This document shows positions 19,898-34,717 of a DNA stretch of 36,601 bases, in pieces. The notes below the pieces were generated by a model, which saw only the letters and a program-made list of their open reading frames with translations, did no database searches and was not told the DNA's origin. Source of the DNA: Candidatus Ventricola gallistercoris (GTDB lineage: Bacteria; Bacillota; Clostridia; Christensenellales; Aristaeellaceae); the NCBI GenBank assembly GCA_018716525.1, contig DVJV01000215.1, positions 1 to 36,601 on the forward strand. The letters run 5' to 3'. Position numbers and translations under genes: made by a program. Numbering within the stretch: the first letter of the stretch is position 1; every line of letters starts with the position of its first letter.

Positions 19898-20018
19898 AAT
19901 AGGGATTAAAAACAGGATAAATGTGTGCCGCCTGCGCAAACGGGACGGAGCATGCCCGGAAAAGACAGGCTGGGCGGCGCGCAGAAGATGGACGGCGAGA
20001 GAATGCCGGAAGGGAACC

Positions 20019-21641
20019 ATGCGAAACAAAATCGGGAAAAGATGGATAGATATCGTGCCGTGGCTTCTTTTGGCGGCGGCATATGCGGTTACGGTTGGGC
20101 ACTTTGCCCTCTATGGCATGCACAATCTGGATGCGGACATGTCCAGCGAGATGCTGTTTGCCGACCTGCTCAACCGGGAAGGGCGGCTTTTGACGGACAG
20201 TTGGTACTACTCCTCGGAGCTGCGCACGGTCAGCCCGGTGCCGCTGTATCAGCTGGGGCTGCTGCTCTTTGATTCGTGGCACAGCGCCCGCGTGTTTGGC
20301 ACGGCGCTCATGCTGGCGGGCATTCTCGCTTCGTTTTTGTACTTTTCGCGGGAAGCCGGCCTGGGCCGCGCCGGTGTGTACATGGCCGTGGTGCTGGCAA
20401 TGCCCTTTTCGGATGTTTATGCCTATGTGGCCTTCCTGAACGGAGGCTATTCGGTGTATCTGATGCTGGTCTTCGTGCTGCTGGGGCTTGTGCTGGGCAT
20501 GGAGAAGGCGCGCCACAGGGGAATACGCCTGCTGCTGACAGGGATTCTGAGCCTGTGGGGCGGCACGGGAGGCGTGCGGATGATGCTCTTTTGGGCCGTT
20601 CCGATCTCGGCAGCCTGCACACTGGAAGCGTTTGAAGCGCTCAGGCAGAACAAGCGCATGGCGCAGGCGTGGCAGCAGCCCCTGCGCATCACGCTGATTG
20701 CCGCTGCGCTGTCCGCGGGGCTGACGGCGGCGGGCTATCTGATCAACGCCAGGGTGCTCAGCGGGCTGTATGACTATGTGCGCTACGACCAGACAGGGCT
20801 TTCGATGCCCCAATCGTCCCTGTTTTTTGCGCAGCTGACGGGCATTGCCGAATTCTTTGGTTACCGGGCGTCCAGCCGGATGCTTTCCTCGCGCGGCGTG
20901 GCCAGCCTGCTGGCGCTGTGCATGATGGGGCTGAGCCTGTATGCCGTTTCAAGGCTCCTGGCGCGCAGCCGCGCGGGCAGGCTTTGCCGCACGCAGCGGA
21001 TATTGCTCTATTTCACAATCAGCTCGCTGGCGCTGGGAATCACGGTCAATGCGCTGACGGAAAACTACTTTGCCCGCTACTATCTGCCCGGGCTCTTGAT
21101 GCTGGTGCTGCTGCTGTTTGTCTGCTGGGAGGGAACGGTGTGCCTCTATGCGCCGCTCAGGCGGGCCGTGCCGCTGGCGCTGTGCGCGGTGTTCGCGCTG
21201 GAGGCGGGCATCTATCTGCGTCAGGAGAAGACCACGCAGACTGCCCCCTATGAAGATGCGGCGGACTGGCTGCTTTCAAACGGCTATACGCGGGGGTTTG
21301 CCACATTTTGGAATGGCGCGCCGCTTACGGAGGCAAGCGACGGGGCCATTACCGTTTACACCATGCCGGATTCTTACTGGCAGGATGACTACAAGCATCT
21401 GACGCTCAACCGATTTTTGCAGGAGAAGGCGAATATCGAAGCTGTTGAGAGCGGAAAGGTGGAAGGACCGGTCTTTGTGCTGCTGACGGCACAGGAGTGC
21501 TTGCAGGATGTGCCCTATGCCGACGAGGCCCACCTGGTTGCACAGCTTGATGCGGGCAATATCTACGTGTATGAAAGCCTCGAAGCTTTGTTTGAGGCCG
21601 CGGGGCAGGGCACGGGTTTGGATCAGACGCAAGCTGCCTGA
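20019..21641 (+). CDS. Polytopic membrane protein, paralog 1 of 3 (GT-C-like architecture, function unknown)
   Basis: ATG after ccggaaggg; MHNLDADMSSEMLFADLLNREGRLLTDSWYYSSELRTVSPVPLYQLGLLLFDSWH; multiple TM segments; soluble C-terminal tail. Confidence 0.8.
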   Translation: MRNKIGKRWIDIVPWLLLAAAYAVTVGHFALYGMHNLDADMSSEMLFADLLNREGRLLTDSWYYSSELRTVSPVPLYQLGLLLFDSWHSARVFGTALMLAGILASFLYFSREAGLGRAGVYMAVVLAMPFSDVYAYVAFLNGGYSVYLMLVFVLLGLVLGMEKARHRGIRLLLTGILSLWGGTGGVRMMLFWAVPISAACTLEAFEALRQNKRMAQAWQQPLRITLIAAALSAGLTAAGYLINARVLSGLYDYVRYDQTGLSMPQSSLFFAQLTGIAEFFGYRASSRMLSSRGVASLLALCMMGLSLYAVSRLLARSRAGRLCRTQRILLYFTISSLALGITVNALTENYFARYYLPGLLMLVLLLFVCWEGTVCLYAPLRRAVPLALCAVFALEAGIYLRQEKTTQTAPYEDAADWLLSNGYTRGFATFWNGAPLTEASDGAITVYTMPDSYWQDDYKHLTLNRFLQEKANIEAVESGKVEGPVFVLLTAQECLQDVPYADEAHLVAQLDAGNIYVYESLEALFEAAGQGTGLDQTQAA

Positions 21642-21688
21642 CGGCTGAAATGCGTTGCACGATTTGATGACGGAGAGGATCAAATAGT

Positions 21689-23284
21689 ATGACAGCAAAG
21701 AAAAAGCCCAATCTATTACCCTGGTTGGTGCTGGCGGCCGCATACCTGTTTGCCGTGGGATTCCAAGCGGTTTACGGGATGCACAACCTCAATGCGGATA
21801 ATTCCAGCGAGATGGTGCTGGCGGATCTGCTCAACGAAGAAGGGGGCTTTTTATCCACCAACTGGTTTTACTCTACGGAGCTGCGCGTAGTCAGCCCCGT
21901 GCCTGTATACCAGCTGGGGCTGCTGCTCTTTGATTCGTGGCATATGGCGCGCACGTTTTCCATTGCCGTGCTGCTGTCGGGGGTTGTGGCCTCGCTCCTG
22001 TATGCGCTCAGAGGGGCGGATATCGGCGATGCCGGAATCTATGCGGCGGCAGCGCTGATTCTGCCGTTTAGCCGGGTGTACAACTACCTGTTCTTGTATG
22101 GCGGCGGGTATACGGTGTTCTTCATGCTCACCTGCTGGCTGATCGGGCTGAACCTTCGGCTGCTGTCGGGGCAAAAGACGAAGAGGCGGCTGCTGCTCAT
22201 TGGCGTGCTCAGCCTGTGGGGTGGGCTCAACGGTGTGCGGATGATGATGATGTCCGGCGCGCCTCTGCTTCTGACCTGCGGCATTCTGGCGTTTCGCCGG
22301 TTTCTACGCTGCCGGTCAGCGGCAGAGGGGCTTGGAAGCGGGGAATTCCGCATGCTGCTGGGCGCAGCGGTGAGCATGGCCGTCATGGCGGTGGGGTATC
22401 TGATCAACGTGTGTGTGTTGGCAGATCTCTATTTCTTCAAGAGTTATCAAAACACACAGTTTACCGGTTTTACTGCCGATGCGCTGTTTGAGCAAATCGA
22501 AGCGCTGCCTGTCTTCTTTGGGGAGCGGACCCAGGTTTCGCTTTTCAGCATGGCAGGCATTTCAAGCCTTTGCGCGATTGGGCTTTGTCTGCTGCTGGGC
22601 ATGGCGATCGTGCTGCTGTACGGGATGCGCACAGAGCTGACGGCGGCGCAAAAGTGCATCGTGCTGTTTGCCGGAGTGGCCACTGCGCTGGGCATAGGGC
22701 TCAATGCGGTGACGGAGCTGGGAACGGTTGAGCACAGCGTGGGATATTATATGACGGGCTTGCAGATGCTGGTGGTTTCCGCCTTCGTTCTGCTGGAAAA
22801 GATGCACTGCGGGCTCAGGCCGATGCGTTCGGCGTGCATGGTGCTGTTGACATCGGTGTTTGCGCTGGAAGCAGTGGTGACGCTGCGCAGCGAATATAAC
22901 AATACCCCAACCACGATTGAAGAGGCGGCAGACTGGCTGGTGGAAAATGGCTATACACAGGGATACACGACCTTCTGGAATGGCAATGTGCTGACGGAGG
23001 CCAGCGACGGTGTGCTGGATGTGTATGTCTACAATTCGTGGGCGAGCTCGCAGTTGTATGACTGGCTGCAAAAGAGGACGCATTGGGAGACGACGCCGCA
23101 AGGGAAGGTGTTTGTCTACATCAGCGAAGATGATTACCAGCCGGAAGTGATGCCTTGTAAACAGGCGGATCATCTGGTATGGCAGAGTCATGAAGGCAGT
23201 ATCTATGCTTATGATAGCGGAGAGCAGGTGGAAGCTCTGCAGAGGGGTGCAGGCGATCAGACGAAAGGGGAGGAATACGAATGA
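21689..23284 (+). CDS. Polytopic membrane protein, paralog 2 of 3
   Basis: MHNLNADNSSEMVLADLLNEEGGFLSTNWFYSTELRVVSPVPVYQLGLLLFDSWH; same layout as paralogs 1 and 3. Confidence 0.8.
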   Translation: MTAKKKPNLLPWLVLAAAYLFAVGFQAVYGMHNLNADNSSEMVLADLLNEEGGFLSTNWFYSTELRVVSPVPVYQLGLLLFDSWHMARTFSIAVLLSGVVASLLYALRGADIGDAGIYAAAALILPFSRVYNYLFLYGGGYTVFFMLTCWLIGLNLRLLSGQKTKRRLLLIGVLSLWGGLNGVRMMMMSGAPLLLTCGILAFRRFLRCRSAAEGLGSGEFRMLLGAAVSMAVMAVGYLINVCVLADLYFFKSYQNTQFTGFTADALFEQIEALPVFFGERTQVSLFSMAGISSLCAIGLCLLLGMAIVLLYGMRTELTAAQKCIVLFAGVATALGIGLNAVTELGTVEHSVGYYMTGLQMLVVSAFVLLEKMHCGLRPMRSACMVLLTSVFALEAVVTLRSEYNNTPTTIEEAADWLVENGYTQGYTTFWNGNVLTEASDGVLDVYVYNSWASSQLYDWLQKRTHWETTPQGKVFVYISEDDYQPEVMPCKQADHLVWQSHEGSIYAYDSGEQVEALQRGAGDQTKGEEYE

Positions 23285-24879
23285 AACGTCAAACCATATC
23301 AAAGGGATTGCCCTGGATGGTGCTGGTCGTCGCATATCTGATGACTGTGATGTTTCAAGCACTTTACGGAATGCACAATCTTAATGCGGATGTTTCCAGT
23401 GATATGGTGCTGGCCCAACTGCTCAACGAAGAAGGAAGCTTATTATCCAATAACTGGTATTACTCAACAGAGCTGCGTTTGGTCAGCCATGTGCCGGTTT
23501 ATCAATTGGGCATGCTGCTTTTTGATTCGTGGCACGCGGTGCGCACGTTTGCCATTGCAGTACTTCTGGCAGGAGCGGCGTTGTCGCTCATCTATGTGTT
23601 AAAAGGCGTGGGACTGCAAAAGTGTGCGCCTTATGCCGCGACGGCAATCATCCTACCCTTTAGCGGAGCACAGGACTTTTTGTTCGTGTACGGCTTGTGC
23701 TACACGGTTTGGTTTATCGTGACGTGTTTGATGCTGGGGCTGATCTTTAGGCTGAATCAGCCCAAAGGCCGCAAAGGAAGGCTGTTTTGGATTGTGCTAA
23801 TCAGCGTAGCCGGAGGTATGGGCGGCTTGCGCATGTTTATGGTGTGCAGCGTGCCTTTGGTGCTTGCGTGCGCATTGCTTGCATTGGTTTGCCTTACACG
23901 CAGCGACACGCTTCGGGAATTCAAAACGAAACAGGAAACCATTCTGTTCTCGGGGGCACTGCTGAGCTTGGCAGCGATGGTCGTGGGTTATGGCATCAAT
24001 GTTGGAGTTCTCAGCCGGATCTACCAATGTAACGACTTTTCTGAAACTGCGTTTCAGTCGTTTGACCTGACATCGCTTCGTATCCAGCTGGAGTATATTG
24101 CGTCCTTTTTAGGTGTGCGTACGGGCGTTAAGTTACTGTCCATTCAAGGAATTGCCAGTGTATGTGCGGTGTGTCTGCTGATCATGTTGCCGCTGAGCGT
24201 TTTGATGCTGTACGGATGGCGCAGAGCGCTGCCTGTGGGGCAGCGCACGTTGATTCTCTTCGCTGTGATGGCTTGTGCGACGGGGCTGGGCATCAACTTG
24301 GTGACGGGTGCAGGCGTAATTCATCCTTATTCCGTTGCCTATTACCTTCCGGGTTTGCTGTTGTTTATTGCAACCTTGTTTATACTGGTTGAGCGGATGC
24401 CTTGCCGCATGGAATGGGTACGCACAGGATGTTTTCTGATGTTGACAGCGGTGTTGGTATTGGAAGCGGCAGTGACACTGCGTACCGAGAAAAAGAACAC
24501 GCCCAGCACCATTGAACTGGCGGCGGATTGGCTGGTAGAAAATGGGTATACCCAGGGGTATTCCACCTTTTGGAATGGCAGTGTGCTGACCGATGCCAGC
24601 GACGGAGTGTTGGACGTTTATACATATTATACCTGGAATGGAACTGAACTGTATCCATGGCTACAGAAGCGGTCTCATTGGAGTGAGCAGCCGGAAGGAG
24701 AGGTCTTTGTCTACATTCATGGAAATGATTATCCGCTGACCGGAAGACCTTGCGAGCAGGAAGACCATCTGGCATGGAGTAATGGGGAGGGCAGTATCTA
24801 CATCTACGACAGCGCGGCGGAAGTTGATGCGCTGCAGCGGGCACAGTGGAGCGAAGCGGACCCGCCCTCCGGGGAATGA
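23281..24879 (+). CDS. Polytopic membrane protein, paralog 3 of 3
   Basis: MHNLNADVSSDMVLAQLLNEEGSLLSNNWYYSTELRLVSHVPVYQLGMLLFDSWH; start overlaps paralog 2 stop (ATGA). Confidence 0.8.
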   Translation: MKRQTISKGLPWMVLVVAYLMTVMFQALYGMHNLNADVSSDMVLAQLLNEEGSLLSNNWYYSTELRLVSHVPVYQLGMLLFDSWHAVRTFAIAVLLAGAALSLIYVLKGVGLQKCAPYAATAIILPFSGAQDFLFVYGLCYTVWFIVTCLMLGLIFRLNQPKGRKGRLFWIVLISVAGGMGGLRMFMVCSVPLVLACALLALVCLTRSDTLREFKTKQETILFSGALLSLAAMVVGYGINVGVLSRIYQCNDFSETAFQSFDLTSLRIQLEYIASFLGVRTGVKLLSIQGIASVCAVCLLIMLPLSVLMLYGWRRALPVGQRTLILFAVMACATGLGINLVTGAGVIHPYSVAYYLPGLLLFIATLFILVERMPCRMEWVRTGCFLMLTAVLVLEAAVTLRTEKKNTPSTIELAADWLVENGYTQGYSTFWNGSVLTDASDGVLDVYTYYTWNGTELYPWLQKRSHWSEQPEGEVFVYIHGNDYPLTGRPCEQEDHLAWSNGEGSIYIYDSAAEVDALQRAQWSEADPPSGE

Positions 24880-24927
24880 GGGAACCGAGCTTCGAGCCAA
24901 TCTATGTATTGAAGGAGGACAATCGCT

Positions 24928-26960: not shown

Positions 26961-28148
26961 ATGACAAAGATTGATATTTTCTCCGGCTTCCTGGGCGCGG
27001 GCAAGACCACGCTCATCAAGAAGCTGCTCAAGGAAGCGCTTGGCGGTGAGCAGGTGGTGCTCATCGAAAATGAATTCGGCGAGATCGGCATCGACGGCGG
27101 CTTTATGAAGGAGGCTGGCATCCAGGTCACGGAGATGAACTCCGGCTGCATCTGCTGCTCGCTGGTGGGCGATTTCGGTAAGGCGCTGCGCCAGGTGATC
27201 GATACCTATCACCCCGATCGCATCCTGATCGAGCCGAGCGGAGTGGGCAAGCTCTCCGACGTCATCCGCGCCGTTGAAGGGGTGGAAAAGGATATCCCCG
27301 AGGCCTGCATGGGCAGCTTTGTGACCGTGGCCGATGCCACCAAGTGCCGCATGTACATCAAAAACTTCGGTGAGTTCTTCCTCAACCAGATCGAGTACGC
27401 AGGCACCATCCTGCTCTCGCGCACGCAGAATCTTTCCCAGGAGAAGCTCGAGGCCGTGGTTGCGCTGCTGCGCGAGCACAATGAAAAGGCGCGCATCATC
27501 ACCACGCCGTGGGATGAGCTCAGCGGAAACCAGATCCTCTCGGCCATGCAGAAGGACCACAGCCTCGCCGAGGAGATGCTCGCTACGGTCATGGCGGAGC
27601 ATCATGAGCACCACTACGACGAGCACGGCGTGTGCAGCTGCGGCCATCATCACGACGAGGATGACCACGACGAGCACGAGCATGAGCACCATCATCATGA
27701 TGAGCATGATCACGACCATTGCCACGATGATCACGACCATGACCACCATCACGATGAGCACGAGCACCATCATCATGACGAGCACGATCATGAGCATCAT
27801 CATGACGAGCATGATCACGAGCATGACCATGAGTGCGGCTGCGGGCACCACCATCACCACGGCCACGACGCCGACGAGGTGTTCACCTCCTGGGGTGTGG
27901 AGACGGTGCGCACATTCGGCGAAGAGGAGCTGCGCGCGATGCTCGGCAAGCTGGAGGAAGAGCGGTTTGGCCTGGTGCTGCGCGCCAAGGGCATCGTGCC
28001 CTGCCAGGATGGCGGCTGGCTGCACTTTGACTACACGCCCGGCGAGCAGAACGTGCGCAAGGGCCCGGCGGATTTCACCGGCCGCCTGTGCGTGATCGGC
28101 TCCAAGCTGTCCGAAAAGGAACTGGCCGGCCTGTTTGGCGTCGCCTGA
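26961..28148 (+). CDS. CobW/COG0523-family GTPase metallochaperone with His-rich linker
   Basis: FSGFLGAGKTTLIKKLL (Walker A), NSGCICCSL (CxCC), long HHxDEHxHEHHHDEHDHEH linker, CobW C-terminal domain. Confidence 0.92.
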   Translation: MTKIDIFSGFLGAGKTTLIKKLLKEALGGEQVVLIENEFGEIGIDGGFMKEAGIQVTEMNSGCICCSLVGDFGKALRQVIDTYHPDRILIEPSGVGKLSDVIRAVEGVEKDIPEACMGSFVTVADATKCRMYIKNFGEFFLNQIEYAGTILLSRTQNLSQEKLEAVVALLREHNEKARIITTPWDELSGNQILSAMQKDHSLAEEMLATVMAEHHEHHYDEHGVCSCGHHHDEDDHDEHEHEHHHHDEHDHDHCHDDHDHDHHHDEHEHHHHDEHDHEHHHDEHDHEHDHECGCGHHHHHGHDADEVFTSWGVETVRTFGEEELRAMLGKLEEERFGLVLRAKGIVPCQDGGWLHFDYTPGEQNVRKGPADFTGRLCVIGSKLSEKELAGLFGVA

Positions 28149-28161
28149 TCGGAGGTGCGGC

Positions 28162-29106
28162 ATGGCTATTCCGGTGTATCTGTTTGCGGGCTTTCTGGAG
28201 AGCGGAAAGACCTCGTTCATCGCCAGCGTGCTGCAGGACCCGGGCTTCACGCGCGACGAGCACACGCTGATCATCCAGTGTGAGGAGGGCATGGAGGAGT
28301 ACGAGCCCGACATGCTCAAAAAGACCCACAGCGTCCTGGAGTGCATCGAGGACGAGGATGAGTACAATGGCGATACGCTGCGCGCGTTTGTGCGCAAGCA
28401 CCATCCCGACCGCGTGATCGTGGAGATGAACGGCATGTGGGATCTGGATGCGGCGCTGGAGCGCACGCCGAAGGTGCTGGAGGTCTACCAGATCATCACG
28501 ACCGTCAATGCGAAGACGTTCGATCTGTATGCCAAGAACATGGGGCAGCGGATGCTCCAGCACATCACCGATGCGGATATGGTGGTGTTTAACCGTGCCA
28601 CGGAGCAGACCCGGCAGCTCATCCGGGACCGCAACGTGCGCAGCATGAATCCGCAGGCAGCCCTCTACTTCGAAAACGAGGATGGCACCAGCGAGGACTA
28701 CGGCGCGGGCATGCCCCCGCCCTATGATATGGATGCCCCCGTCATCGAGATCGAGGACCAGCATTTCGGCATCTTCTACCTGGATGCATCGGAGAACCCC
28801 GAGCAGTACGACGGCAAGACCGTGCGCTTCAAGGGCTACATCTACCGCGGGCGGAACATCGCTTCCGATGAATACGTGCCCGGCCGCATGGGCATGGTCT
28901 GCTGCGCGGAGGACATCCGTTTCGTGGGCTTCATTGCCAAGGCAAACGGGCTGCCCATCCCCGCCTACAAGAGCTGGCAGATGATCACCGCGCGCGTGCA
29001 GGCCGAGGAGCGCAAGCAGTACAAGGGCGTGGGCCCGGTGCTCTATGTTACGGCGGTTGAGCCCTGCGACCCGCCCGAGGAAGAGGTTGTCACATTTAAC
29101 GCATAA
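28162..29106 (+). CDS. CobW-like GTPase fused to YcgQ/DUF1980 (TIGR03943)-like C-terminal domain
   Basis: YLFAGFLESGKTSFIASVLQD N-terminus; C-terminus EQYDGKTVRFKGYIYRGRNIASDEYVPGRMGMVCCAEDIRFVGFIAKA...WQMITARVQAEERKQYKGVGPVLYVTAVEPCDPP. RBS atcggaggtg. Confidence 0.85.
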   Translation: MAIPVYLFAGFLESGKTSFIASVLQDPGFTRDEHTLIIQCEEGMEEYEPDMLKKTHSVLECIEDEDEYNGDTLRAFVRKHHPDRVIVEMNGMWDLDAALERTPKVLEVYQIITTVNAKTFDLYAKNMGQRMLQHITDADMVVFNRATEQTRQLIRDRNVRSMNPQAALYFENEDGTSEDYGAGMPPPYDMDAPVIEIEDQHFGIFYLDASENPEQYDGKTVRFKGYIYRGRNIASDEYVPGRMGMVCCAEDIRFVGFIAKANGLPIPAYKSWQMITARVQAEERKQYKGVGPVLYVTAVEPCDPPEEEVVTFNA

Positions 29107-29110
29107 GCCC

Positions 29111-29139
29111 TTTTCAATGATCCATTCTTATGATATACT
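29111..29139 (+). promoter_or_regulatory. Candidate promoter for riboswitch-ecf operon
   Basis: TTTTCA (29111-29116), 17-nt spacer, TATACT (29134-29139). Confidence 0.5.
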
Positions 29140-29180: not shown

Positions 29181-29303
29181 GCCGGTCTTCATGGCGGGGT
29201 GGAATTCCCGACCGGCGGTAGAGTCCGCGACGGATGGCAGGGCCATCTTTGATCCGGTGCGATTCCGGAACCGACAGTACAGTCTGGATGAGAGAAGACG
29301 GCT
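29181..29303 (+). promoter_or_regulatory. FMN riboswitch (RFN element) aptamer
   Basis: P1 GTCTTC/GAAGAC; conserved GGGGTGGAATTCCCGACCGGCGGTAGAGTCCGCGA and GATCCGGTGCGATTCCGGAACCGACAGTACAGTCTGGATGAGAGAAGAC. Confidence 0.95.
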
Positions 29304-29323
29304 TACGGCAGCTAAGATGTGTG

Positions 29324-29362
29324 CGGCGCCCGAAAACCGTTTTGGGCGCCGTATTTTGTGTT
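29324..29362 (+). terminator. Riboswitch expression-platform terminator
   Basis: CGGCGCCC-(GAAAACCGTTTT)-GGGCGCCG followed by TATTTTGTGTT, between aptamer and ecfA1. Confidence 0.8.
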
Positions 29363-29391: not shown

Positions 29392-30243
29392 TTGGCAAAC
29401 CTTGAGGAAAACAGGATCATCGCCAGCAACCTGGTGTACACCTACCCGGAAGCAAAGAAAAACGCCGTGGACGATGTGTCCATGCGCGTCAAGCGCGGGG
29501 AATTTCTGGCGATATTGGGGCACAACGGAAGCGGCAAATCGACGCTGGCCAAGCTTTTCAACGCCCTGTACGTCCCGACGGATGGCACGGTGTGGGTCTG
29601 CGGGCTGGATACGCGCGATGACGATTTGGTCTTTGACATCCGCCAGCACGCGGGCATGGTCTTCCAAAACCCCGACAACCAGATCGTGGCGACCGTCGTG
29701 GAAGAGGACGTGGCCTTTGGCCTTGAAAACAACGGCGTGCCGCCGGCGGAAATCCGCGTGCGCATCGATGAGGCGCTGCGCGCGGTGAACATGAGCGCGT
29801 TTGCCAAGAAAGCGCCGCACATGCTCTCGGGCGGACAGAAGCAACGGGTGGCGATCGCCGGCGTGCTGGCGATGAAGCCGGACGTGATCATCCTGGATGA
29901 ATCCACGGCGATGCTTGATCCCAGCGGCCGCCAGGAAGTGATGAACACCGTCCACCGCCTCAACGAAGAAGAGGGCATCAGCGTGGTGATCATCACGCAC
30001 TACATGGCCGAGGCGGCGACGGCGGACTATGTGATCGTCATGGACGAGGGCAAGATCGCCATGAGCGGCACGCCGCGCGAGGTGTTTAGGCAGGTGGAGC
30101 GGGTGCGCGCGCTGGGGCTGGATGTGCCGCCGATGACCGATCTGGCGCATATGCTGCGCGCGGATGGGCTTTCTATCCGCGAGGATGTGCTCACAGTGGA
30201 TGAGATGGTGGAGGAAGTATGTCGCTTGTCATCGAAAATGTGA
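29392..30243 (+). CDS. ecfA1: ECF transporter ATPase EcfA1
   Basis: TTG start with [90 protein letters not shown]. Confidence 0.92.
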
Positions 30244-31085
30244 ATTACGTGTACATGTCCGGCGGACCGTATGAGACGCACGCGCTGCACGACATCTCGC
30301 TGACCATCGAGGATGGCGAGTTTGTGGGGCTGATCGGGCACACGGGCAGCGGCAAATCGACGCTGGTGCAGCACTTAAACGGCTTGCTCAAACCCACCAG
30401 CGGGCGCATTCTCGTGGATGGGCTCGATCTTTCGGACAAGGCGACGGACAAGCGCGCGATCCGCCGGAAGGTGGGGCTGGTGTTCCAGTACCCCGAAAAC
30501 CAGCTCTTTGAGGAGACGGTGGAAAAGGACATCGCCTTTGGCCCCAAGAACCTGGGGCTTGACGCGGCGGAGATCGACCGCCGGGTGCGCGAGGCGATGC
30601 GGCGCGTGGCGATTGACTACGATGCCATTCACGACCGGTCGGTCTTTGAGCTCTCGGGCGGACAGATGCGGCGCGTGGCGATTGCGGGCGTGCTGGCCAT
30701 GGAGCCGCAGGTGCTGGTGCTCGACGAGCCCTGCGCGGGGCTGGACCCGCGCGGCCGCGAGGAGATACTGGGGCTGATCCGCGCGCTGCACCGGGAGTCC
30801 GGCGCGACGATCGTGATGGTGAGCCACTCGATGGATGATGTGGCCTCCCTGGCCGGGCGCGTGATCGTGATGAACCATGGCCGCGTGGCGATGGATGGCA
30901 CGCCGCGGGAGGTCTTTGCCCGCGGCGAAGAGCTGCGCGCCATCGGGCTGGATGTGCCGCAGGCCGTGGAACTGGCTGAGAGGCTGCGCGAGCGGGGGCT
31001 TGATATCCCGCAGGGCGTGTATCAGATGGAGGAGCTGCGCGCGGCGATTGCAGCTGCCGTGGGAAAGGGGAAGCGCCATGCTTAA
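30219..31085 (+). CDS. ecfA2: ECF transporter ATPase EcfA2
   Basis: [84 protein letters not shown]. Confidence 0.94.
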
Positions 31086-31884
31086 CGACATCACGCTGGG
31101 CCAGTTTTTCCCTGGCGATTCTGCAATCCACCGCATGGACCCGCGCATGAAGCTCATCCTGACGATCGTCTACATCGTGGGCGTGTTCATGGTGAGCAAC
31201 CTGCTGGGATACCTGATTTCGCTGCTGTTTCTCTACATCGTGGTGCGCATTTCCGGCATCCGGTTTTCATACCTGGTCAAGGGCATCAAGCCGCTGCGGT
31301 TCATTCTGATCTTCACGTTTGTGCTGAACCTGTTCTTTGCAAAGGGCGAGACGGTGCTGCTCAGCCTCGGCTTTTTCACGCTGACGGCGGAGGCGCTCTC
31401 CTATGCGACGTACTTTGCGCTCAGGCTGGTCTTCCTGGTCATGGGCACATCCGTGCTCACGCTGACCACGAGCCCAGTGCAGCTTACCGACGGCCTGGAG
31501 CGGCTCATGCACCCGCTTCAGCGCTTCCGCTTCCCCGCCCATGAGCTGGCGATGATGATGACCATCGCCCTGCGCTTTATCCCCCTGCTGCTGGAGGAAA
31601 CGGACAAGATCCAAAAAGCGCAGATGGCGCGCGGCGCCGACTTTGAAACGGGCAACCTCATCGCGCGGGCCAAGGCCATGATCCCGCTGCTGGTGCCGCT
31701 GTTTGTCAGCTCCTTCCGGCGCGCAAACGACCTGGCCATGGCCATGGAGGCGCGCTGCTACCGGGGCGGCGATCACCGCACAAGGCTGCGTGAGCTGCGC
31801 TATACGCGCCTGGACGCCTATGCCGTGGTGGCGATGGCGGCGTTCCTGATGGTGATCTTTGCGGAGGGACGGCTGCTTGGATGA
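31078..31884 (+). CDS. ecfT: ECF transporter transmembrane component EcfT
   Basis: [17 protein letters not shown], coupling motifs AQMARGAD and [10 protein letters not shown]; polytopic. Confidence 0.93.
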
Positions 31885-31939: not shown

Positions 31940-32710
31940 ATGCGCCGCTTCAAGCTGACCGTCGAGTACGATGGAACGGCATACAGCGGCTGGCAGCGGC
32001 AGATCAACGGCCCGAGCGTGCAGCAGACGCTGGAAGAGGCGCTTTGCCGCCTGACGGGTGAGCGGATCGCCGTCACCGGCTCGAGCCGCACGGATGCGGG
32101 CGTGCACGCGCTGGGGCTGTGCGCGCATTTTGACAGCGCCAGCCGCATTCCGCCGGAGAAGGTGAGCTTTGCGCTCAACACGATGCTCCCGCCGGACATC
32201 CGCGTGCGCGAAAGCGGCCTGGCAGCGGAAGGGTTCCACGCGCGCTATGCGGCCCGGGGCAAGGTGTACCGCTATGTGTTTTGCAACGCGAGGCACATGT
32301 GCGCCATCGGGCGGCAGTACCGCGCGCACGTGCCGTTCCCGCTGGATGTGCCGCTCATGCACAGGGAGGCGCAGAGCCTGGTGGGCACGCACGACTTTGC
32401 AGCCTTTGCGGCCAGCGGCAGCGTGGCCAGGAGCACGGTGCGCACATTGTACCGCATTGAGGTGACGCGTCGCGGCGAGGATGTGGTGCTGACCGTGCTG
32501 GGGGATGGCTTTTTGTACAACATGGTGCGCATCATCGCCGGCACGCTGGCGGAGGTCGGCGCCGGACGCCGTGCGCCGGGGGCAATGGCGCGCGCGCTGG
32601 AAACGGGCGACCGGCTCGAGCTGGGGTACACCGCCCCTGCGTGCGGGCTGACGCTGCTCGCCGTGCTTTATGGCGGGGATGAAGCGGTGGCGCTGTCGTA
32701 TTTTGCATAA
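31940..32710 (+). CDS. truA: tRNA pseudouridine(38-40) synthase
   Basis: KLTVEYDGTAYSGWQRQINGPSVQQTLEEAL, GSSRTDAGVHALG, DGFLYNMVRIIAGTL. Confidence 0.96.
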   Translation: MRRFKLTVEYDGTAYSGWQRQINGPSVQQTLEEALCRLTGERIAVTGSSRTDAGVHALGLCAHFDSASRIPPEKVSFALNTMLPPDIRVRESGLAAEGFHARYAARGKVYRYVFCNARHMCAIGRQYRAHVPFPLDVPLMHREAQSLVGTHDFAAFAASGSVARSTVRTLYRIEVTRRGEDVVLTVLGDGFLYNMVRIIAGTLAEVGAGRRAPGAMARALETGDRLELGYTAPACGLTLLAVLYGGDEAVALSYFA

Positions 32711-32773: not shown

Positions 32774-34717
32774 GTGTATCTGACGCTGGGAGTCATGGCC
32801 CATGTGGATGCCGGCAAGACGACGCTGTGCGAGCAGATGCTCTGTCATGCTGGGGTCATCCGGCGGTGCGGCCGGGTGGATCATGGCGACGCGTTCATGG
32901 ATGCCAGCCGCCTGGAGCGCGCGCGGGGCATCACGATCTTTTGTGAACAGGCGGGCTTTTCCCTCGGCACGGAGGAAGGCGAGCCGCTCGAGGTCACGCT
33001 CATGGACACGCCGGGCCATGTCGACTTTTCCGGCGAGGCGGAGCGCGCGCTGTCGGTGCTCGATGCGGCGCTGCTGGTCGTCTCCTGCGCAGAGGGCGTG
33101 CAGAGCCACACGGTGACGCTGTTTCGCATGCTGCGCGCCAGGCGGATTCCGGCGCTGATCTTTTTGAACAAGACGGACCGCGAAGGGGCGGACGTGGATC
33201 GCACGATGGCGCAGATGCACAGGCTCCTGAGCGGGGACTGCGTGCTGATGACGGGCGCGGAGACAGACGCGCTGCGCGAGGAGCTGGCCGCGCGCGATGA
33301 AGCGCTGCTCGAGCGCCACTTTGAAGGCGATGCCTCCCGCGAGGAATATCTGGCGGGCGCGCGCCGCGCATTTGCGGCGGGCAATCTGTATCCCGTGCTG
33401 GCGGGAAGCGCGCTGCTGGATGAGGGGGTGGATGCGCTGCTGCGCGCCATCGCCGCGCTGTGCCGGACAGACTGGGCGTCGCATGAAGGCGATGCGTTTG
33501 CCGCGCAGGTCTACCGGGTGCGCAGGCTGGGCAGCGTGCGTTACAGCTATGTGCGCGCGACAGCGGGCCATCTGTCCTCGCGCGATATGGTGCAGACCGT
33601 GTGCGGCGTGCAAAAGGTCAGCGCGCTGTGCAGTGCGCAGGGGGGGAAGATCTCGCCGCTGTCCGAGCTTCATGCGGGACAGACGGGGCTTCTGGCGGGC
33701 ATCGACGCCCGGCCGGGCGAGCGCATTGGCGCAAACTGCGGCACGACAGGGCAGACGCTTGTGCCGCTGATGAGCGTGGAAATCGAGGGGGCGCCGCCGC
33801 TGGAGCGGCAGACGCTGGTGGCCCATCTGCGCGAGCTGGAGGAAGAAGACCCGCTTTTGAGCGTGCACCCGACGCCCCGCGGGGCGAGCGTGGGCATCAT
33901 GGGTGCGGTGCAGATTGAGGTGCTGGGCAGCTTGCTGGAAGAGCGGTTTGGCGATGAGGTGCGCTTCATGCCGCCTCAGGTGCTCTACCGGGAGACGGTG
34001 GCAGCGCCTGTCATCGGCATCGGGCACTATGAACCGCTCAGGCACTATGCGGAGGTCTGGCTGCGCATTGAGCCGGGGAAACCTGGCAGCGGCGTGACGT
34101 TTGAGGCGGCCTGCGCGCCCAATTCGCTGGATGTCAACTGGCAGAGGCTCATCGGCACGCACGTGCTGGAGCGGGAACACCCGGGCGTGCTTACCGGAAG
34201 CCCCCTGACCGATGTGCGCGTCACCCTGATCGCCGGGCGTTCGCACCTCAAGCACACGGAGGGCGGCGATTTTCGGGAGGCGACATACCGCGCCATCCGC
34301 AATGCGCTGATGCAGGCGGACAATGTGCTGCTGGAGCCCGTCGTGCACTTCGAGGCAAGCCTGCCACAGGAAGCGGCCAGCCGGGTGACGGGCGAATTGT
34401 TGCGGCTGGGTGCGTCGCTGGATGCGCCGCTCTATGAGGGGGACGAGGTGACGATCGCCGGAACGTGTACCGCGGCATCGTTTTGGGATTACCCTTCCCG
34501 GTTTGCCGCGTCCACGCGCGGGCACGGGCGCATCGCCTCGGGCTTTTTGCGCTATGAGCCGTGCAAGGATCAGCAGAGCATTGTTGCAGAGATGGGGTAT
34601 GCTCCCCTGGCGGACGAGCAAAATCCTCCGGGCAGCGTATTCTGCACACACGGTGCAGGCGTTTACGTGGCATGGGATAAGGTGCGAGAGTGGGCGCACT
34701 GCGCGGTGGAAACGTGA
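32774..34717 (+). CDS. TetM/EF-G-like translational GTPase (divergent ribosomal-protection-protein family)
   Basis: GVMAHVDAGKTTLCEQMLCHAGVI, RLERARGITI, LMDTPGHVDFSGEAERALSVLDAALLVVSCAEGVQSHT, IFLNKTDREG, EF-G domain IV/V-like C-terminus. Confidence 0.9.
   Translation: MYLTLGVMAHVDAGKTTLCEQMLCHAGVIRRCGRVDHGDAFMDASRLERARGITIFCEQAGFSLGTEEGEPLEVTLMDTPGHVDFSGEAERALSVLDAALLVVSCAEGVQSHTVTLFRMLRARRIPALIFLNKTDREGADVDRTMAQMHRLLSGDCVLMTGAETDALREELAARDEALLERHFEGDASREEYLAGARRAFAAGNLYPVLAGSALLDEGVDALLRAIAALCRTDWASHEGDAFAAQVYRVRRLGSVRYSYVRATAGHLSSRDMVQTVCGVQKVSALCSAQGGKISPLSELHAGQTGLLAGIDARPGERIGANCGTTGQTLVPLMSVEIEGAPPLERQTLVAHLRELEEEDPLLSVHPTPRGASVGIMGAVQIEVLGSLLEERFGDEVRFMPPQVLYRETVAAPVIGIGHYEPLRHYAEVWLRIEPGKPGSGVTFEAACAPNSLDVNWQRLIGTHVLEREHPGVLTGSPLTDVRVTLIAGRSHLKHTEGGDFREATYRAIRNALMQADNVLLEPVVHFEASLPQEAASRVTGELLRLGASLDAPLYEGDEVTIAGTCTAASFWDYPSRFAASTRGHGRIASGFLRYEPCKDQQSIVAEMGYAPLADEQNPPGSVFCTHGAGVYVAWDKVREWAHCAVET

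What the first reader, a model, noticed from the sequence alone, without database searches (positions are those of the whole stretch)
29181..29362. FMN riboswitch in front of the ECF energising module ecfA1-ecfA2-ecfT
The RFN element is intact, with a terminator before ecfA1. FMN riboswitches normally control rib biosynthesis genes or ribU. Here the first genes are the ATPases and T-component, with truA downstream, and no ribU-like S-component in the window. This would place the general ECF module, potentially shared by several vitamin S-components, under FMN control, or mean that this module is dedicated to riboflavin.
Basis: partly seen in the sequence, partly recalled or inferred. Interest (0 to 1): 0.66.

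Follow-up and report, generated by a model that had tools for sequence, protein, structure and literature searches.

The report
FMN riboswitch on shared vitamin-transporter motor
In some gut bacteria that appear unable to make vitamin B2, an RNA sensor of its active form FMN sits in front of the genes for the motor that powers uptake of several vitamins, rather than only in front of the B2-specific part, so B2 status may set the capacity for other vitamins as well.

Summary
An FMN riboswitch (RF00050, 108 bits) lies at 29181-29303, with its own promoter (29111-29139) and a terminator (29321-29354), ahead of ecfA1-ecfA2-ecfT-truA. A separate RibU exists elsewhere in this genome under its own FMN riboswitch, and at least three other S-components exist, but only one EcfA1-EcfA2-EcfT module was found. 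The module is therefore best read as shared, not riboflavin-dedicated.

The host is a Candidatus Ventricola MAG (Clostridia). No genome of the genus (0 of 29) has lumazine synthase, so they are probably riboflavin auxotrophs. The promoter-riboswitch-terminator cassette precedes ecfA1 in 9 of 27 Ventricola genomes and in 3 of 3 Onthenecus-like genomes. It is cleanly absent from 18 congeners with the same gene order, and from all 107 other Clostridia sampled. It is an old element at this locus, not a recent copy of the ribU leader.

A correction to 'intact': this copy carries G-to-U at aptamer position 10, an FMN-phosphate contact, unique among 64 riboswitches compared. Its antiterminator is also the weakest of the 12 ecfA1 leaders, so switching in this species is uncertain.

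Verdict: a real, moderately surprising new use of a known riboswitch; function untested.

The parts
29111..29139 (+). Promoter: TTTTCA - 17 nt - TATACT with extended -10 (TG)
   Evidence: Consensus scan (2 found against 0.3 expected in shuffles of the region). The same TTTTCA-N17-TGnTATAmT block stands ahead of the riboswitch in all 9 riboswitch-positive Ventricola loci (one reads TGTTCA); the pattern scan found none upstream of ecfA1 in the 18 negative ones.
29181..29303 (+). FMN riboswitch aptamer (RFN element), with a G-to-U change at position 10 of J1/2
   Evidence: RF00050 108 bits, full model. The substitution is unique among 64 riboswitches.
29321..29354 (+). Intrinsic terminator of the expression platform
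   Evidence: 15-bp stem, 4-nt loop, then TTTGTGTT. A GCGGCGCCCGAAgac...TTTCGGGCGCCGC type hairpin is kept across riboswitch-positive Ventricola.
29392..30243 (+). ecfA1, ECF ATPase A1 (TTG start, GGAGG ribosome-binding site upstream)
   Evidence: TIGR04520 393 bits over cut-off 315
30219..31085 (+). ecfA2, ECF ATPase A2
   Evidence: TIGR04521 397 bits over cut-off 330
31078..31884 (+). ecfT, transmembrane T-component
   Evidence: PF02361 170 bits; PDB 4huq_T E 6e-61, 5d3m_D E 7e-57
31940..32710 (+). truA, tRNA pseudouridine synthase, downstream in the same direction and probably co-transcribed
   Evidence: TIGR00071 189 bits over cut-off 143
28135..29106 (+). Upstream neighbour: CobW-type GTPase fused to a DUF1980_C domain. 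Syntenic in both riboswitch-positive and -negative congeners, so it brackets the cassette
   Evidence: Pfam; tblastn synteny and gap sizes

Best explanation
The element is an FMN-responsive leader on the single shared (group II) ECF energising module of a riboflavin-auxotrophic Clostridia genus. Together with a second FMN riboswitch ahead of ribU, it puts both the specific and the common part of the riboflavin importer under FMN control. When FMN is scarce, the 5' strand of P1 plus J1/2 (GUCUUCRGGGC) pairs with the 5' arm of the terminator (GCGCCCGAAGAC), so the polymerase reads through and EcfA1-A2-T is made. When FMN is plentiful, P1 closes, the terminator forms and the module is reduced. 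Because FolT and other S-components appear to depend on the same module, FMN status should also alter uptake of their substrates. Shown here: anatomy, own promoter, single module, separate ribU with its own riboswitch, absence of RibH, conservation and phylogeny. Inferred: ligand, OFF direction, sharing by the other S-components, physiological cross-talk. In this particular species the switch may be weakened by the G10U change and a poor antiterminator.
For: Full-length RF00050 match. Complete promoter-aptamer-terminator cassette conserved at the same site in 9 Ventricola species, with mutually exclusive P1/antiterminator pairing in the others. Own genome: second riboswitch at C4:8344-8458 directly upstream of RibU (PF12822 120.7 bits; PDB 3p5n E 3e-24); further S-components at C97, C244 (FolT; 4z7f, 4huq_S) and C70; one EcfA1-A2-T set. 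No lumazine synthase in 29 of 29 genus genomes, while all 14 controls have it. S-component counts do not differ between riboswitch-positive and -negative species. The riboswitches at ecfA1 form one clade (91/84), apart from the ribU riboswitches. Competition of S-components for one module is established for group II ECF transporters (PMC7755397).
Against: No expression or binding data. The window's aptamer has U at position 10, a residue that coordinates the FMN phosphate and lies in the switching sequence (PMC7573352), and its antiterminator duplex is the weakest of 12 (-14.7 against -17.4 to -24.7 kcal/mol) while P1 is the strongest. The genome is an 84.6%-complete MAG, so a second module or further S-components could be missing. 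Eighteen congeners do without the cassette, so it is dispensable.
Confidence: 0.68

Rival explanations
1. The module is in practice dedicated to riboflavin, so the riboswitch is an ordinary control of a riboflavin importer whose parts are split over two loci. The other S-components are minor or use another motor.
For: FMN control of both ribU and ecfA1A2T; a second, distant T-component exists (C207, 43 bits, next to a TetR-type gene).
Against: ecfA1-ecfA2-ecfT-truA is, from general knowledge, the usual order of the shared Firmicutes module. Riboswitch-positive genomes keep 4-7 S-components, as many as the negative ones, including a clear FolT in the window's genome. No ribU lies beside the module in the window or in the related loci examined.
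Confidence: 0.15
2. In this species the riboswitch is decaying. The G10U change and the mismatched antiterminator leave a leader that mostly terminates or answers FMN poorly, on the way to the absence already seen in 18 congeners.
For: U10 is unique among 64 riboswitches. Weakest antiterminator and strongest P1 of 12. The cassette is patchily absent in the genus.
Against: The rest of the aptamer is conserved (108 bits, full length), and promoter and terminator are well formed. Riboflavin and analogues without the phosphate still bind this class of aptamer (PMC7573352, PMC7824784), so loss of one phosphate contact need not abolish switching. The base could also be a MAG sequence error.
Confidence: 0.35
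3. The G10U change makes a variant aptamer with altered ligand preference, as with the known rare FMN-riboswitch variants.
For: Single change at a ligand-contacting residue in an otherwise conserved aptamer. Variants of this class with other ligands exist (described in PMC11477304).
Against: One species only; the closest relative (G150) has the normal GGGGC. The target genes are still vitamin-import genes.
Confidence: 0.05

Closest known systems
FMN riboswitch (RFN element, RF00050) upstream of ribU in Firmicutes
   Same: Same aptamer family, transcription-termination layout and pathway; this genome has that arrangement too (C4).
   Different: Here a second copy controls the energising module rather than the substrate-binding component. 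A survey of 233 FMN sites in 183 genomes sorted the targets into riboflavin biosynthesis or riboflavin transporters (PMC3766115).
Group II (shared) ECF module ecfA1A2T of Firmicutes
   Same: Same genes, order and truA neighbour; S-components encoded elsewhere.
   Different: Organisms are said to produce the S-components by need and let them compete for the limiting module (PMC7755397). Here the module itself has a vitamin-cofactor riboswitch.
Riboswitch-controlled ECF operons for one substrate (e.g. cobalamin riboswitch ahead of ECF operons)
   Same: A cofactor riboswitch ahead of ECF module genes (examples in PMC11477304 and PMC5301498).
   Different: Those operons are assigned to one substrate (cobalt or cobalamin); here the S-component is not in the operon and the module appears shared.

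Membership tests
FMN riboswitch (RF00050) | Aptamer sequence and six-helix structure | tested here: met
   108 bits, model 1-138 complete
FMN riboswitch (RF00050) | Conserved FMN-contacting residue G10 | tested here: not met
   Position 10 of J1/2 is U instead of G in this copy only; 63 of 63 others have G, including the 11 other ecfA1 leaders. The rest of the core matches the consensus. Sequence-level family membership stands on the score; full ligand competence of this copy is in doubt.
FMN riboswitch (RF00050) | Expression platform with terminator and competing antiterminator | tested here: met
   Terminator present. Competing pairing strong in relatives, weakest but still predicted in the window.
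FMN riboswitch (RF00050) | FMN binding and regulation | not testable with these tools
   Needs in-line probing and transcription assays
Group II shared ECF module | A1, A2 and T genes without an S-component in the operon | tested here: met
   no S-component in the window
Group II shared ECF module | Several S-components in the genome and a single module | tested here: met
   4 PF12822 S-components, one EcfA1/A2 pair, one full EcfT; MAG 84.6% complete
Group II shared ECF module | Physical use by several S-components | not testable with these tools
   Needs transport or pull-down assays
Dedicated (group I) riboflavin ECF transporter | S-component encoded with its own A and T components | tested here: not met
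   RibU lies on another contig under its own riboswitch
RibU (S-component at C4) | Homology to characterised RibU | tested here: met
   PDB 3p5n E 3e-24, 5kbw E 5e-17

The most novel reading that the evidence does not exclude
A vitamin-cofactor riboswitch has been placed, and repeatedly lost, ahead of the shared ECF motor within one genus of riboflavin auxotrophs. FMN status then sets the import capacity for several vitamins at once: a hierarchy among vitamins imposed by RNA at the shared component instead of at the S-components.
Probability: 0.5. Interest if true: 0.65.

Novelty: new variant of a known kind. Interest (0 to 1): 0.52.

Why it matters
Group II ECF transporters are thought to be tuned by making S-components on demand, with competition for a limiting motor (PMC7755397). 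A riboswitch on the motor itself is a different control point: riboflavin sufficiency would reduce transport capacity for folate and other vitamins. The genus offers a natural experiment, since related species with the same gene order have or lack the promoter-riboswitch-terminator cassette at the same junction. It also means that riboflavin analogues acting on FMN riboswitches could hit uptake of several vitamins in such auxotrophs.

Tried and rejected
Recent copy of the ribU riboswitch: rejected, because the ecfA1 riboswitches form their own clade. Assembly artefact of the linkage: rejected, because the same cassette stands at the same junction in separate MAGs of 9 Ventricola species. Degenerate riboswitch remnants in the 18 negative congeners: none at E up to 1. 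Widespread but overlooked linkage: none in 107 other Clostridia, by comparing match coordinates by eye; in a family-wide sample of 150 genomes only the window's genome and three genomes of one other genus. One shared origin with Onthenecus: neither supported nor rejected (p-AU 0.25). The literature search in the held open-licence library found no report of an FMN riboswitch ahead of ecfA1; most subscription papers, including Rodionov et al. 2009, and supplementary tables could not be read.

Full report
Observation. RF00050 matches window 29181-29303 (+) over its full length with 108 bits. A sigma-70-type promoter with extended -10 lies at 29111-29139 and a 15-bp terminator hairpin with a T-rich tail at 29321-29354. 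The genes that follow are ecfA1 (29392-30243, TTG start), ecfA2 (30219-31085), ecfT (31078-31884) and truA (31940-32710).

One correction. The aptamer is not fully intact. J1/2 reads CUUCAUGGC where every other riboswitch collected (63 of 63, from the genus, the family and the second copy in the same genome) has G at that position. Numbered as in the Fusobacterium nucleatum crystal structures (numbering placed from memory of that sequence, and consistent with residues 6-11 being the switching sequence), this is G10. G10, G11, G32, G62 and G84 coordinate the FMN phosphate, and residues 6-11 are the switching sequence (PMC7573352). The predicted antiterminator (P1 5' strand plus J1/2 with the terminator 5' arm) is -14.7 kcal/mol here against -17.4 to -24.7 in the 11 other ecfA1 leaders, while P1 is the strongest (-13.9 against -7.8 to -9.7). 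These are simple duplex energies without tertiary contacts, and the base could be a MAG sequence error. The nearest relative (G150) has the normal GGGGC.

Genome context. The window's genome (2.37 Mb, 253 contigs, 84.6% complete) has a second FMN riboswitch at C4:8344-8458, directly ahead of an S-component (C4:7668-8192) that matches RibU of known structure (3p5n, E 3e-24). Three further S-components lie at C97, C244 (FolT: TIGR04518 111 bits over cut-off 60; 4z7f and 4huq_S) and C70 (PF07155 90 bits). One EcfA1/EcfA2 pair and one full T-component exist, all in the window; a distant partial T-component sits at C207 beside a TetR-type gene. So the riboflavin-specific and the common parts each carry an FMN riboswitch, and the common part is the only recognisable motor for the other S-components.

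Riboflavin auxotrophy. Lumazine synthase (PF00885) is absent from all 29 genomes of the genus, 9 of them at least 90% complete with at most 5% contamination, while all 14 control genomes have it. Other rib genes were not tested.

Distribution. EcfA1 homologues place the host in Candidatus Ventricola (closest record Ca. V. intestinavium, 93% identity). The riboswitch precedes ecfA1 in 9 of the 27 Ventricola genomes with an ecfA1 hit. Eight come from searches. The ninth is G150, where the cobW-type gene, promoter, riboswitch and terminator end one contig and ecfA1 begins another. Eighteen congeners have the same neighbouring genes but no riboswitch, no promoter pattern and no remnant; in six of them ecfA1 follows the cobW-type gene by only 12-31 nt. 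The linkage also occurs in all 3 sampled genomes of a second genus (Ca. Onthenecus-like), with a different upstream gene and a different terminator. It was not seen in the other 146 genomes of a family sample nor in 107 other Clostridia (coordinates compared by eye).

Evolution. On a tree of the locus proteins (cobW-type gene, EcfA1, EcfA2) the cassette needs at least 4 changes over both genera; several forks near the base of Ventricola are unresolved. A tree of the riboswitches themselves keeps the nine Ventricola ecfA1 riboswitches together (91/84), apart from the ribU riboswitches. The cassette is thus an old resident of this junction that has been lost more than once, or has moved among congeners; the data do not separate these.

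Mechanism. In the riboswitch-positive relatives the P1 5' strand (GUCUUC) can pair either with the P1 3' strand (GAAGAC) or with the GAAGAC-like motif in the terminator 5' arm (GCGCCCGAAGAC). That is the layout of an FMN-OFF transcription attenuator. Direction and ligand are inferred from the family; nothing was measured.

Shared or dedicated. Riboswitch-positive species carry 5.6 S-components on average and negative ones 5.3 (counted), so having the cassette does not go with fewer other S-components. This, the truA neighbour and the absence of an adjacent S-component favour a shared group II module. Group II S-components compete for the same module (PMC7755397), so FMN control of the module should spill over to other vitamins. 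That consequence is a prediction.

Known or new. FMN regulons have been described as riboflavin biosynthesis plus riboflavin transporters (PMC3766115, PMC4418817), and cofactor riboswitches ahead of ECF operons for cobalt or cobalamin are known (PMC11477304, PMC5301498). I found no report of an FMN riboswitch on the shared module in the open-licence library, which omits most subscription papers. I rate it a new variant of a known kind.

Side finding. In the same family other FMN riboswitches precede a UgpA/UgpE-type permease pair, followed by a UgpB-like binding protein where more sequence was read. It is a candidate flavin importer and deserves its own study.

Noticed in passing
L151 (G116:C3), L152 (G155:C192), L153 (G141:C243); L010, L015, L024, L025, L027, L028, L034: FMN riboswitches directly ahead of a UgpA-UgpE type ABC permease pair, followed in the three longer loci by a UgpB-like solute-binding protein and then a type I phosphodiesterase (G116) or an unidentified ~305-aa protein (G155, G141). 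G116 has no strong RibU hit, so this may be an undescribed flavin or flavin-nucleotide importer.
   Followed up: partly
L047 (G096:C101), L115, L118-L120, L122, L123, L125, L127, L129, L114, L035: A distinct FMN-riboswitch group (5' end TCTTTGG) ahead of a second S-component (about 32-35% identical to the window genome's RibU within Ventricola); some species (G096, G165, G171) have both types.
   Followed up: partly
window 26961-29106: Two adjacent CobW-type GTPases, the first with a long His/Asp-rich stretch, the second carrying a DUF1980_C (TIGR03943-like) domain; possibly metal handling.
   Followed up: no
window 32774-34717: EF-G-like protein closest to tetracycline ribosomal-protection proteins but far below the curated cut-off (379 against 775 bits); probably a divergent paralogue.
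   Followed up: no
L042, L045, L131, L150 (junctions upstream of ecfA1): In several congeners the cobW-ecfA1 junction holds repeat-like inserts instead of, or after, the riboswitch cassette; in G150 the contigs break at such a repeat.
   Followed up: no
window 20000-24880: Three consecutive paralogous membrane proteins (MHNLDADMSSEM / MHNLNADNSSEM / MHNLNADVSSDM motifs), of unknown role.
   Followed up: no
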